This document shows, in pieces, positions 8,608 through 63,972 of a DNA stretch of 64,000 bases. Under the pieces are notes generated by a model that did no database searches, had not been told where the DNA came from, and worked only from the letters and a program-made list of their open reading frames with translations. The stretch comes from Medicago truncatula. Lineage: Eukaryota; Streptophyta; Magnoliopsida; Fabales; Fabaceae. Positions within the stretch are counted from its first letter, which is position 1. Each line of letters begins with the position of its first letter. The translations under genes were made by a program, and so were the position numbers. The stretch is taken from assembly GCF_003473485.1 (NCBI RefSeq), contig NC_053042.1, positions 36,112,762-36,176,761 on the forward strand, written 5' to 3'.

Positions 8608-8658
8608 AACAATTATGAATTACTTATTTTTTTTTTTTACAACAATTATGAATTACTT
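8608..8658. repeat. Oligo(T) micro-insertion between 18-bp direct repeats
   Basis: The sequence AACAATTATGAATTACTT occurs at 8608-8625 and again at 8641-8658, separated by only 15 bases (a, twelve T, ac). It looks like a tail-only insertion with its target duplication. Confidence 0.7.
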
Positions 8659-9504
8659 TTAACTATGAAGCAAATACACAAAAACATATATCATGCCCCC
8701 TCAAAAAAAGAATACAATACAGAATAAAACATGAAAAATCGACACCTGTAATAATTTTAAAATAATAAATTAATTGAATGAAGTCATATGTATTGGTGTA
8801 GAACCATGTATCGGTCACAAGACACATCTTATTTCGAGTGTCGATTTTTATAAAAAATTGTTAAAAGATGCAGTTCATATCTCATAAAAACATAAATTTT
8901 AAATATTATTGTTCAACGTTTGATCTCTAAACATCAATTGAGTCTGGAGACATATTTGTATCATGGTGAGTCTTCAAACCCAACTCACATAAAAAAAATG
9001 GCAATGGGGGCATACCTCATGATATCATGTTTGTTCTTTTAATTATTTTAAAATTCAAAATATAAATGAGCCCTCCAAGCGACTGGTGACATATGATTCC
9101 AATGACAAACAAACCTTATATCATTCCATTTGAGCAAGCTGAGTCAGGTACACGACATGCATATATAATATGGACAATATTGTGTTTTGTCCTCATGCGT
9201 AAAATTCAACAAAACATCCATTGACCTTAATCCAATACCATATTTAAGTTCTTTATTAATAATGGACACCCTCGTCACTCAATTTTTTTAAATAACCCCC
9301 AAAACAACAACTTACACCCACTTATATTTTACTAAAACATCCATTAAAATCTATTTGAAATAGATTGACAGTTTTGTAACTAGCTTAAAGACATAGTTGT
9401 TTTTCTTAGTTTTCCACCGGATTTCTGTGAGTTCGATTAGTTCCATTTCAATGCATCTTGGAAAGAAAAAGCGGAACATTTGATTTCAATACATTTGCAA
9501 GCGT

Positions 9505-9549
9505 AAAACTTGACAGCCTTTTTTTTTTAATAGGGAAAAACTTCACAGC
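9505..9549. repeat. Oligo(T) micro-insertion between 13-bp direct repeats
   Basis: AAAACTTGACAGC at 9505-9517 recurs as AAAACTTCACAGC at 9537-9549 (one mismatch). The 19 bases between begin with a run of T. Same type as the repeat at 8608-8658. Confidence 0.5.
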
Positions 9550-9710
9550 ATTACTTAGTAACAAAAAAAATGTAGTTTATAATTAATTTCCAAAACAAAA
9601 ACTTCCGTTTATTCTTCTAAAAAAAACTTCATTTTATAATTATTAATTGACATTAGGTGATAAGGTTCGTAAAAAAGAAAAGGAAGTATTTTTTTTTTAT
9701 AAAGTAATAT

Positions 9711-9867
9711 TAGCAACACTCTCTTTTCAACACTTTCTTTAATGATCACTCTCTTATTGGTTTAAATCATTGTGGGTCTACACCTTAAAAATTGAACTCA
9801 CACAAAGTAGTTGGACATACATTGATTTCATCTAATAAAAGAGTGAGTGCTGGAGAGAGTGTTGCTA
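9711..9867. mobile_element. MITE with TAGCAACACTCTC termini
   Basis: A 157-bp AT-rich segment has a perfect 13-bp inverted repeat, TAGCAACACTCTC at 9711-9723 and its complement at 9855-9867. No coding frame. The superfamily is not assigned because no convincing target duplication is visible. Confidence 0.7.
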
Positions 9868-59989: not shown

Positions 59990-60036
59990 AAATCTACACA
60001 CTTGTCTCTTTCAAAAAAAAAATCTACACACTTGTC
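59990..60036. repeat. Oligo(A) micro-insertion between perfect 17-bp direct repeats
   Basis: AAATCTACACACTTGTC at 59990-60006 recurs at 60020-60036. The 13 bases between are tctttc plus seven A. Confidence 0.7.
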
Positions 60037-60508
60037 ATTGTACAATTGAATAGCTTGTTGTGACTTCAGCGTCTATTTTTTATGGGAGCTTTGCACACTG
60101 ATCTGTGTTAAGCATTTCTTAATCATGCGCAAAAAGAAATCCTGTTTCATCTATGTTTCCCCCAAAACTGCTTTTTTCGGGTGACTACCTCTCACGAAAA
60201 AATATGTAGAAATATTAAAGCACAAATCGAAATGTAAAAGCAAGCAAAAAAGGGACAGAGGAGTCATCAACATTTTTCATTTCAAACAAGTTTTACTAGT
60301 ACAAGAGAAAACAAAATATTAGAAAGTGAGAAACCTATCGAAGACAAACCTGCAACACCACCAAACATGTTACATTTACATCTAGAAATGGAGTAAGCTA
60401 CGACAAATGAAAATTGCAACTAATCCTACGAATGTTTATCTTCTCCCTCTATCCACGGTTCACTGTAATTTTTGAATGTGAGTGGAACAGGGTTCTCTGG
60501 AGACCTGG

Positions 60509-63411
60509 TCAATTTTCACAGTATAGTCTTTGCTTCACCCGCCTTCCATTTACATCACTGCCATCAAGTATTGCTTCGTTTCTATGCTTGCACAGGAAGT
60601 CCGAATGCTCAGTAAATCTAGCCACATACTCCAAGAGCTCAGTCAAAACAGATGGGCAACTTTCCTTCAAGTACTCGAAACCATCAGTTTGCATCACAGC
60701 TGAAAAGAAGAAAGGAAACGAAATACTTCAGTTGATATCATAGGTCTGATGAAGAATAAATAGGTACAAACAATTCTTTTGTTGTTATTGTACGCATACA
60801 AATTTACCAACAATTTGGGTAAAACTGTAAAAGCCATCATATACAGCATCCTAATTAAAAGAGTTTAAGAACTGCTACTACATCAAAAATACCCAAAGTC
60901 ACTAAGCTTGATTTGCATAAACAAAGTAGTTGTAATTTTTGTAAAAACAAATCCTTAATAAAGCATAAGCATACGAATTTTCAGTGATAGCAACATACAG
61001 ACATGAATGTCATTAATGACTTTAATTTTCAGTGATAGCAACATACAGACTTTCAGGCCTTTTAATGTCCCAATTCCCCTAATATTGCACATGTTTTTCT
61101 TTTTGTTGTATGTGAGAGACAGAATAGAAGTTCAGTAAACTAAAACACACCTCTGAGATTTTCAGGCCTTGCAATGAATTTCAAACAGACTGCTTTCAGC
61201 TGGAAACAATGGTGCTGCTCTGCCAAAGCTAAAGTTGTAGCCACGGTATTTATTGCAACATCTTCACATAGACTTGCTTCACACATCAGCCTAAGTCTAT
61301 CTAAGGCATACCGATCAGCTGCTGCTAGCAGATGCTGAGCCATCAAGGTAGTTGCCCATTTTGAGTTAATCCCAGTAAGCTCTTGCATGTCAGGCAGCGA
61401 GTCCCAATATATAACATGAAGCAATGCCTTCAAAATAGAGAAAAAAATATGGCATAGCACAGCAGACAAGTTGCACATTCCATATGCATGTTATTAAACT
61501 TCATTTATAAACTAAATAATACCACAAACACATTAAACACAAGTACAACATGTTGTAAACATACGTAAACTGCATACAGTCAACGGCGGTTTGAAAAACC
61601 AATGGTTTAATAAGAATTAGAGAAACCAGCTAGAACAACTCAACAAACAGGAACCAAGCAATAAAGGAACTAAAATCAGAAAGGAACTCGGAATTAATTT
61701 CAATCAATTTTCAAAAGATATGTATATCAGAACAATCAACGCCAACATTTTTTGCAAACATGTATTAAGATGATACACCCTACTAATGCCAGAAGCAGGC
61801 AGGATTGGTCACTAAGTCGGTTGCAATTGTATGCTTAACAATTATAATAAGGGGAAATATTCTAAAACGAAACGAAGTTCAATATCTATATCAGGACAGA
61901 GACAAAAAGGATAATCGCAACGAATTTTGCAACAGCATTGCAAACATAAATAAATAAAAATTAAAAAATGATAAAGAGGAAGCACAAAAAAAAAAAATAT
62001 ATTTAAACCTTGAAAACAGGAGCCTCAATATCTTCAACTTTTATACACTGTGTATTCTGATCTTTCATAGGACCAAAAAGCTGAGCTCTAAAAACAGGTG
62101 ATCGAGCTGCTAATACCAATTTATGAGCCGCAAAAATTTCGCCATTCACTTCAAAATTCACATCACTGCTTTTTCCACTTTCCAGAAGCTTCCCAAACTG
62201 GTGACCAATAGTAGAAGGTGATATTGGAATTGAAAATGTTTTAGGGCCCTCTGTGTGTGACCTCACAACACCGACGCTACAATTAACACTAAGACAGTTA
62301 TCTTTAAGGTAATCTGAAGTCTCTAATGACGTTCTCTTAAAAAATCTCTTGTATCCCCTGAAACACAATTTAAAATAATTAGCCTTTACAAAACTGTACA
62401 TCTTCCATTGTCACAAAAAAGTTCCATGAACTCAATTCAGCAGGAAATATTTCGCCAAACCAAAATCAACAAATGCATTCAATGGGAGACAGCAAACTTC
62501 ATTATAAATCAGAAAATAAAATGCCATTACTTTGAGTTATTTAAGGGGATAGAGGCCCTCTCACACCCCCACCCCCCAAAAAACGAATCAAACATTTGCA
62601 TCACATGAAAAAATAACACGAAACATTCCACCGCAAAATGAACAAATTACTAATATCAGAAATCCTTTCACCCCTTTTCCCAATTCAAAACACTTCAGCA
62701 TTTTCAACTCACAGTCACAGACATGTATAACTTCCAAATATTCATCTTTCTTATAAATAAAAATCACCCAAAATTCATAGCATTCCAAGTAACCAACATT
62801 GGGTCAATTCAAGAACAAGAACATAACAATCAAAATTTACACAAAATGTAAAAAAACCCATCAAGTGCAAACCTTTACAAACACTACCCTCAACAACAAG
62901 ATCAGAACATAGCAAAAATTAAAAAAGACTGTTTTTATGCAAATTAAACTAAGTGATAACTGAAAACTAACCACATGCTACCACGGTATTTCAACGTATA
63001 AGGTCCACTCTCCAACGTCCTATCAAAATGACTATGAACCTTATGCCTCTCTTTCCCACTCTGATCCAAAAGCGTTAATTCAAAAAGCGCCCTAACATCA
63101 GTCCCTTCACTCGCAAGCGCGATGAAAAGCGACACATACGTAGCATTATCCTCCACGCTTTTCCCATCAGGGTAAAAATAAATCGCCCATTCGTACCCAC
63201 CAACGGTGAAAATCTCCGATGCTATGTATTTCCCAATTCCAATCCCTTTTGAGAGTGAATACCCCGTTATCTTGAACCTGTGTGAGCCTTTGATGGTGTC
63301 GGTTATCGATGTTGAGGAGGTTGTTGATGGAATTGAGGGTGGTGATGGTGATGAAGATGATGATGATGAATTTGAGGATGGCCTCGTTGTTTCTCGAAGA
63401 ATCTTACCCAT
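60509..63411 (-). CDS. BPM: BTB/POZ-MATH (BPM-type) Cullin3 substrate adaptor, 418 aa
   Basis: Four exons: 62972-63411, 62009-62357, 61151-61427 and 60509-60699. After a Ser/Pro-rich N-terminus, a MATH domain spans residues about 43-175 ([46 protein letters not shown] text, [19 protein letters not shown]). A BTB/POZ domain spans about 200-320 ([45 protein letters not shown]). A BACK-like helical tail contains [18 protein letters not shown]. Such proteins bind CUL3 through BTB and substrates through MATH, and target transcription factors (for example homeodomain-leucine zipper and ERF/AP2 types) and PP2C phosphatases for ubiquitination. Length and exon pattern match Arabidopsis BPM proteins of about 400 aa. 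Which BPM it is closest to cannot be said by eye. Confidence 0.94.
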
Positions 63412-63917
63412 ATGAGAGCCACGAGAAGGTGAATTGGTGGTGAAATTAGGGTGAGATTATGTAGAATTCAAACCCGATCTGTGGGAATTGGGATCGGGTG
63501 AGAATCTTTATCGAGAAAAGGTGAGATTTTGGAAAGAAAATATAGGGGAATTTGAAGATGGAAATTCTAGGGTTTGGATTTGGAGAAAGAAGAGATAAAT
63601 GAAAAAATGGAAGAAAATCTATGGATGGTGGTGATAAAGGAAAGTTGATGTGTCACGCGCTATGGACTTCGCGTAGATTTTATAGTTCATTTGGTTGAGT
63701 TGTTTTTATTTTTTGAACACGTGTATGGGTGTGATAGGTAGATCTAGGAAGCAAAAAAGTTGTGACGACGGTGAATTTATACAGTGAATTATTTTGTCAC
63801 GTTTGGCGGCGCCTCAATTTCCAGTTTCCACCGTACTCAAGAAAAGTAAACACCTTTCTTAAACCAAACATGAGGTTTCATTCTAATCATTACTATTTTC
63901 TCAAAAAAAAAAAAAAA
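63412..63917 (-). promoter_or_regulatory. 5' UTR and promoter of the BPM gene
   Basis: The leader is purine-rich on the plus strand. A palindromic G-box CACGTG lies at 63718-63723, about 300 bases before the start codon, and is a candidate site for bHLH or bZIP factors. Nothing else is resolved. Confidence 0.5.
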
Positions 63918-63972
63918 CTAATCATTTATTTATTCTTTCAAAAAAGAAAAAATCTAATCGTTTATTTATTCT
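63918..63972. repeat. Oligo(A) micro-insertion between 19-bp direct repeats
   Basis: CTAATCATTTATTTATTCT at 63918-63936 recurs with one change at 63954-63972. The 17 bases between are ttcaaaaaagaaaaaat. A further CTAATCATT at about 63883 followed by tctca and an A run suggests the event happened more than once at this site. Confidence 0.6.

What the first reader, a model, noticed from the sequence alone, without database searches (positions are those of the whole stretch)
8608..63972. A recurring class of tail-only micro-insertions flanked by 12-19 bp direct repeats
At eight or more places a short direct repeat flanks an insert of only about 13-22 bases made mostly of a T or A run with a short cap. 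Perfect or near-perfect cases are 8608-8658, 12877-12926, 14531-14573, 59990-60036 and 63918-63972; weaker ones are 9505-9549, 12786-12837 and 17872-17912. Repeat lengths match target duplications made by LINE-type target-primed reverse transcription. The inserts look like poly(A) tails with almost no body: the A-strand caps are ttc/ctca or gta/gtta. One event interrupts a dead LINE, so the process post-dates it. Two LINE relics in the same window show that suitable enzymes existed. I know of no named plant element family of this form. Double-strand-break repair with filler DNA is the main alternative.
Basis: partly seen in the sequence, partly recalled or inferred. Interest (0 to 1): 0.72.

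Follow-up and report, generated by a model that had tools for sequence, protein, structure and literature searches.

The report
Bodyless LINE insertions: poly(A) tails only
Short A-runs flanked by duplicated host DNA in this plant genome look like footprints of LINE jumping genes that copied only their tail end before stopping, and in the sampled DNA they outnumber recognisable LINE remains.

Summary
The class is real. Of the eight cited places, four are clean (8608, 12877, 14531, 59990), and weak case 12786 is upgraded. Three (9505, 17872, 63918) are below threshold or local repeats. Flanks match at 17 of 477 A-runs, against 0.15 on average with permuted flanks. I accept 17 events, chosen by eye, in 304 kb, mostly chromosome 1.

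Anatomy on the A strand: target duplication, cap of usually 2-8 nt, A-run, target duplication. Sixteen of 17 targets begin with A. With exact repeats, right-side inserts cluster at 9-27 bp: 12 of 15 rows. Two events sit in one dead L1-type LINE; without the inserts it aligns gap-free to other LINE copies, so both are true insertions. Of 20 LINE 3' ends, 16 end TTC or CTC before poly(A). Six of 14 caps fit that profile in the top 3.1% of A-run contexts; eight do not.

Best explanation: abortive target-primed reverse transcription, often on LINE RNA, stopping within about 10 nt of the tail. Poly(A)-only inserts are known in humans; ten searches found no plant account. A new variant of a known kind.

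The parts
8608..8658 (-). Tail-only insertion: 18 bp duplications 8608-8625 and 8641-8658 around GT+A12+T (A strand). A third, imperfect copy of the same target lies at 8449-8466.
12785..12839 (-). Tail-only insertion in the LINE relic: duplications 12785-12802 and 12822-12839 (2 mismatches), insert TCCTTC+A-run
   Evidence: empty site
12877..12926 (-). Tail-only insertion in the same LINE relic: 15 bp duplications 12877-12891 and 12912-12926, insert ACGT+A16
   Evidence: empty site
14531..14573 (-). Tail-only insertion: 13 bp duplications 14531-14543 and 14561-14573, insert GTTGT+A8+TAAT; a dispersed repeat ends 5-17 bp upstream
59990..60036 (+). Tail-only insertion: 17 bp duplications 59990-60006 and 60020-60036, insert TCTTTC+A7; the 301 bp around it matched only itself in the genome search
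12550..12950 (+). Dead L1-type LINE ORF2 C-terminal relic, the host of two of the events
63918..63972 (.). Three-unit repeat with A-runs; not accepted as a clean event
17872..17962 (.). Three-copy local repeat with A-runs; not accepted
9505..9549 (.). 13 bp repeat with one mismatch around a T-run; below threshold

Best explanation
These are bodyless insertions made by the L1-type LINE machinery of this genome. The LINE endonuclease nicks the target at an A-rich (bottom strand T-rich) site, the exposed T's anneal to the poly(A) tail of an RNA, and the reverse transcriptase copies the tail plus usually 2-8 further nucleotides. It then stops, the second strand is cut about 12-22 bp away, and the gap is filled. 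That leaves duplication, cap, A-run, duplication. In six of 14 tested events the template is most simply the LINE RNA itself, because the cap looks like the pyrimidine-rich 3' end of LINEs in the same genome. The rest (GT, CCTT, GTAACC and others) would come from other LINE families or other polyadenylated RNAs. Shown: direct repeats, orientation, empty sites at two loci, short-insert cluster, cap likeness in six. Inferred: the enzyme, the RNA intermediate, and early stopping as the reason for the short size.
For: Permuted flanks: 17 of 477 A-runs match at score 13 or more, against mean 0.15 and maximum 1 over 20 permutations; by eye 4 of the 17 are other local repeats. Orientation: 23 rows forward, 7 reversed for inserts of 6-39 bp, before any curation; 0 in three shuffles. 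One of the 7 reversed rows is the 8608 event itself. Size: with exact repeats of 13-24, 12 of the 15 right-side rows have inserts of 27 bp or less; a right-side A-run is present in 11 of 36 pairs with spacing under 25 bp and in 4 of 127 with spacing of 25 bp or more. Empty site: the joined LINE protein meets 150 scored matches of 758 first-look candidates; two are the relic itself, and by hand count about 113 of the other 148 run through both junctions with a DNA span that leaves no room for either 35 or 37 bp unit. It aligns without gaps to L031 and L032. Caps: 6 of 14 in the top 3.1% of A-run contexts on a profile of 20 LINE ends, 19 of them distinct (binomial 2e-6, with the cut set after seeing the scores). 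Targets: 16 of 17 begin with A, 13 of 17 have A second. Open LINE frames up to 1388 aa exist. None of 18 LINE 3' ends (180 bp each) matches the 264 kb sample.
Against: Eight of 14 caps do not resemble the sampled LINE ends, including all three GT-type caps of the window. The LINE ends were picked by eye as the first A-run near the expected distance, and the list of 17 events was chosen by eye. The base before the nick is T in only 7 of 17, so the endonuclease motif is weak. A at the target start is partly an alignment effect. Spaced duplications without A-runs are common, and some wrong-side cases look good, such as L011:6253 and a reversed row in L026. In the relaxed scan 17 forward rows have inserts of 60-400 bp against 10 reversed, so longer inserts are not absent. 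Orthologous empty sites were not testable, and for 12877, 59990, L012:7861, 14531 and 8608 no other copy found in this genome crosses the site at DNA level.
Confidence: 0.8

Rival explanations
1. The tails were captured mainly from ordinary mRNAs or SINE transcripts rather than LINE RNA: same machinery, other templates, each copied for a few nucleotides only.
For: Eight of 14 caps do not match the LINE ends; GTAACC recurs in L022:1405 and L056:1124, while only 3 of 587 A-run contexts end so; plant L1s of two lineages are proposed to recognise only poly(A) (PMC3747384, passages seen).
Against: Six of 14 caps fit the LINE profile at the top 3.1%, more than expected of mixed mRNAs; my LINE sample covers only 20 copies, so unsampled families may explain more.
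Confidence: 0.35
2. Double-strand break repair with staggered ends and filler DNA, followed by expansion of A-runs.
For: Many spaced short duplications without A-runs occur in the same DNA, and such repair makes tandem duplications in plants (recalled; of the papers I saw only the listing).
Against: The A-run lies next to the second copy in 23 rows against 7 in reversed sequence; targets begin with A in 16 of 17; six of 14 caps match LINE ends. Repair filler is not expected to do any of these.
Confidence: 0.1
3. Former bodied LINE or SINE insertions that lost their bodies by internal deletion.
For: Tails and duplications would look the same.
Against: Deletion would have to stop a few bases from the tail and at the first duplication every time; exact 13-19 bp duplications in most events argue for young age.
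Confidence: 0.05
4. Chance pairs in AT-rich DNA.
For: A-runs are frequent (485 of 7 or more in 264 kb, both strands).
Against: Shuffles and permuted flanks give almost none.
Confidence: 0.02

Closest known systems
Human L1-mediated poly(A)-only insertions, such as the roughly 120 bp poly(T) in NF1 exon 25 (PMC3219598) and two somatic inserts described as essentially only polyA (PMC4498532); passages seen
   Same: A tail with little or no body, attributed to L1 target-primed reverse transcription; the NF1 authors suggest a severely truncated Alu, L1 or pseudogene.
   Different: Few human events, the NF1 one with a long tail; here A-runs of 7-22 bp, in a plant, as a recurrent class with partly LINE-like caps.
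5'-truncated L1-clade LINE insertions of flowering plants (L1-clade LINEs reviewed in PMC3747384, passages seen; truncation itself recalled)
   Same: Poly(A) end, target duplication and, for six of 14 caps, the same kind of 3' end sequence.
   Different: Truncation to usually 2-8 nt of body, which body-based annotation would miss.
Poly(A) SINE-like inserts of this genome (L009:6962, L025:4583, L028:676)
   Same: Target duplications and poly(A); inserts of 57, 84 and 94 bp.
   Different: They share a CCACCAC-like end and, in L009:6962, a tRNA-like A box (motif recalled); the tail-only inserts have neither.
Tandem duplications with filler DNA from break repair (recalled)
   Same: Short duplications with extra bases between them.
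   Different: No oriented A-run and no LINE-like cap expected.

Membership tests
L1-type LINE insertion by target-primed reverse transcription | Target site duplication of about 7-20 bp | tested here: met
   13-19 bp in the exact cases, 12-22 bp over all 17
L1-type LINE insertion by target-primed reverse transcription | Poly(A) at the 3' side, next to the second copy | tested here: met
   23 forward against 7 reversed rows
L1-type LINE insertion by target-primed reverse transcription | Single-copy empty site | tested here: met
   Two of 17 events, by LINE paralogs at protein level; searches for five events found no crossing DNA copy (12877 is in both groups), the rest untested
L1-type LINE insertion by target-primed reverse transcription | Endonuclease motif T/AAAA-like at the nick | tested here: inconclusive
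   A at the first base 16 of 17, second base 13 of 17, but the preceding base is T in only 7 of 17
L1-type LINE insertion by target-primed reverse transcription | Inserted sequence is LINE 3' sequence | tested here: inconclusive
   6 of 14 caps at the top 3.1% of contexts on the LINE-end profile, 8 not
SINE | Internal Pol III boxes and a body | tested here: not met
   Inserts of 9-32 bp have no room; sequences
Filler-DNA tandem duplication | Insert without strand orientation relative to the duplication | tested here: not met
   23 against 7 rows

The most novel reading that the evidence does not exclude
In this plant genome most LINE integration events leave no LINE body. The reverse transcriptase gives up within about ten nucleotides of the tail, so tens of thousands of bodyless footprints (17 in 304 kb, about 56 per Mb, or about 24,000 if the mostly chromosome 1 sample is typical) outnumber LINE copies many-fold. 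They would be a hidden record of LINE activity and a main source of A/T microsatellites.
Probability: 0.4. Interest if true: 0.68.

Novelty: new variant of a known kind. Interest (0 to 1): 0.55.

Why it matters
If most LINE nicks end in tail-only footprints, LINE activity in plants is badly undercounted by annotation that needs a body, and A-run microsatellites with duplicated flanks become datable markers of it. The short size would also make a mechanistic question testable: what stops the plant LINE reverse transcriptase just after the tail.

Tried and rejected
Rejected places: 9505, 17872, 63918 (see observation check). Rows dropped by eye from the 23 rows with inserts of 6-39 bp: L009:8938, L017:1177, L026:9166, L015:7344, L015:5850, L015:7480, W:36910, W:17896 (low complexity, local repeats or ambiguous; L015:5850 is borderline). 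Fifteen were kept; W:14531 was added and L056:1124. L056:9759 (nested) and L025:6808 (score 11) were not counted. The permuted-flank scan itself does not list 14531, because four bases lie between its A-run and the repeat.

DNA paralogs crossing the sites: none found for 12877, 59990, L012:7861, 14531. For 8608 the 39 other hits end before the site, in the first repeat copy or, in 3 cases, a few bases into the insert. Self-comparison of 28 fetched sequences gave no further empty site (the first run returned nothing, probably an unsupported gap setting). The source of the GTAACC cap was not found: the one other context, L028:3527, shows no element that I recognise. Pfam at E up to 1 gave no LINE family for the relic or the 28862-29215 fragment. 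In the 264 kb, tblastn with two LINE fragments hit only the relic, but a motif look shows a further LINE-like zinc-knuckle stretch at L025:9246 (motif recalled). Literature: 10 searches listed no plant report of this class; most subscription papers are not held.
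Full report
Setting. The window is G000:C1:36112762-36176761 of a 430 Mb genome in 42 contigs.

Observation. All eight strings are present. Four are exact repeats with the A-run on the correct side (8608, 12877, 14531, 59990), and 12785-12839 is a fifth with two mismatches. 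Three others fail. Chance is excluded for the class: 6 window pairs with A/T runs, 4 of them accepted, against 0 in 8 shuffles; flank matches at 17 of 477 A-runs against 0.15 with permuted flanks. Four of those 17 I read as other local repeats (L009:8953, W:17942, L026:9509, L009:9038).

Generality. In 200 kb of chromosome 1 (20 stretches of 10 kb spread over 1-43 Mb) and 40 kb of chromosomes 3, 5, 7 and 8 I accept 12 more events, so 17 in 304 kb: 5 in 64 kb of window, 12 in 240 kb outside it. The sample is not random and is mostly one chromosome. Three of the four stretches on other chromosomes held none with a short insert.

Anatomy. Read on the A strand: duplication (13-19 bp in the exact cases, 12-22 bp over all), cap (2-8 nt in 14 of 17; two weaker events have 14 and 19 nt; L011:7513 has none), A-run of 7-22 bp counted with the A's of the second copy, duplication. 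Sixteen of 17 targets begin with A and 13 have A second; the base before the nick is T in 7, C in 5, G in 3, A in 2. Part of the A signal is an alignment effect: with my own rough estimate of 0.55 by chance, 16 of 17 has probability 6e-4.

Size class. With exact repeats of 13-24 in 264 kb, right-side A-run inserts number 12 at 27 bp or less (one of them, W:17896, not accepted) and 3 at 60-217 bp; wrong-side rows number 2 below 25 bp, both of them accepted events whose insert is nearly all A, and 4 at 60 bp or more. The relaxed scan shows 23 forward against 7 reversed rows at 6-39 bp, and 17 against 10 at 60-400 bp; two SINE-like inserts (84 and 94 bp) are among the 17, and a third of 57 bp falls between (rows over 130 bp were counted, not looked at). 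One 113 bp insert appears in L055. None of 18 LINE 3' ends (180 bp each) matches the 264 kb. So the short class stands out in this sample, though a modest number of longer inserts is not excluded and LINE families outside my 18 queries would be missed. LINE remains that I recognise in the 264 kb are the relic at 12550-12950, the fragment at 28862-29215 and L025:9246 (the last two by recalled motifs).

Empty sites. The relic at about 12550-12950 carries both 12785-12839 and 12877-12926. Its protein, joined across the two inserts, finds 150 scored matches of 758 candidates; two of the 150 are the relic itself, and by hand count about 113 of the other 148 run through both junctions over about 290 bp. 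L031 and L032 align to the joined relic without a gap through both junctions. Other LINEs therefore have the single-copy state, and both events post-date the LINE. For four further events (8608, 14531, 59990, L012:7861) searches found no crossing copy; the rest were not tested or the search did not complete.

Caps and templates. Twenty LINE 3' ends, picked by eye, are mostly pyrimidine-rich, such as ...TCTCTC or ...TTTATTC directly before A7-A19; 16 of 20 end in TTC or CTC, the other four in TATT, TGT or GCT. Of the 20 regions fetched, L040 and L042 gave no clear end; L031 and L032 were added. Six of 14 caps (TCTTTC, TCCTTC, CTTGTTC, TCTCTCTC, TCACTC, TCCTC) score in the top 3.1% of A-run contexts; eight do not, including GT, GTTGT, ACGT and TGTAACC. 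The 14 leave out L011:7513 and L023:109 of the events then known; L056:1124 came later. One sampled LINE ends ...AATGT before its A-run (L039), so a GT cap is possible for a LINE. GTAACC occurs before 3 of 587 A-runs, two of them events, source unknown.

Mechanism. The evidence fits target-primed reverse transcription that stops almost at once. Shown: duplication, orientation, empty sites at two loci, short-insert cluster, cap likeness for six. Inferred: enzyme, RNA intermediate, cause of stopping. Whether the other caps come from LINEs or other RNAs is open; some plant L1s may need only poly(A) (PMC3747384, passages seen).

Known work. Human poly(A)-only inserts exist: a roughly 120 bp poly(T) in NF1 (PMC3219598, passages seen) and two somatic inserts called essentially only polyA (PMC4498532, passages seen). 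Maize LINE annotation looked for blocks of 3-10 kb with protein motifs (PMC2774510, passages seen), which would miss this class. Ten literature searches listed no plant description (named in Tried and rejected).

Verdict. It is a known kind of event in a form and at a frequency that I did not find described. Interest 0.55.

Noticed in passing
8449-8658: The target AACAATTAT(T/G)AATTACTT occurs three times: before a dispersed repeat (about 8467-8607, with a B-box-like GGTTCAAACC, motif recalled), after it, and after the tail insert. Two insertions of opposite orientation seem to have used the same cut site.
   Followed up: partly
L056:9759-9833: Two stacked tail inserts (CCTT+A10 and an A11G run) seem to share one target GATATATTCAAAGTT.
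   Followed up: no
L022:1405-1450 and L056:1124-1172: Two unrelated loci share the cap (T)GTAACC before the A-run; the source RNA is unknown.
   Followed up: partly
40003-52708: Tandem array of three legumin-like seed storage protein genes on the minus strand, by ORFs (name recalled).
   Followed up: no
28862-29215: 117 aa open frame with RWFGHV, recalled as an RTE-type LINE C-terminal motif; Pfam gave no LINE hit.
   Followed up: partly
L025:9246: LINE-like zinc-knuckle stretch (HLFLHC, motif recalled) seen in a motif look but not found by tblastn with two LINE fragments.
   Followed up: no
9757-9835: Rfam match to MIR5269 precursor.
   Followed up: no
14400-14526: A dispersed repeat (39 other copies scored of 590 candidates) ends 5-17 bp before the tail insert at 14531; another repeat edge lies 24-62 bp before L012:7861. 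Tail inserts may favour repeat edges.
   Followed up: no
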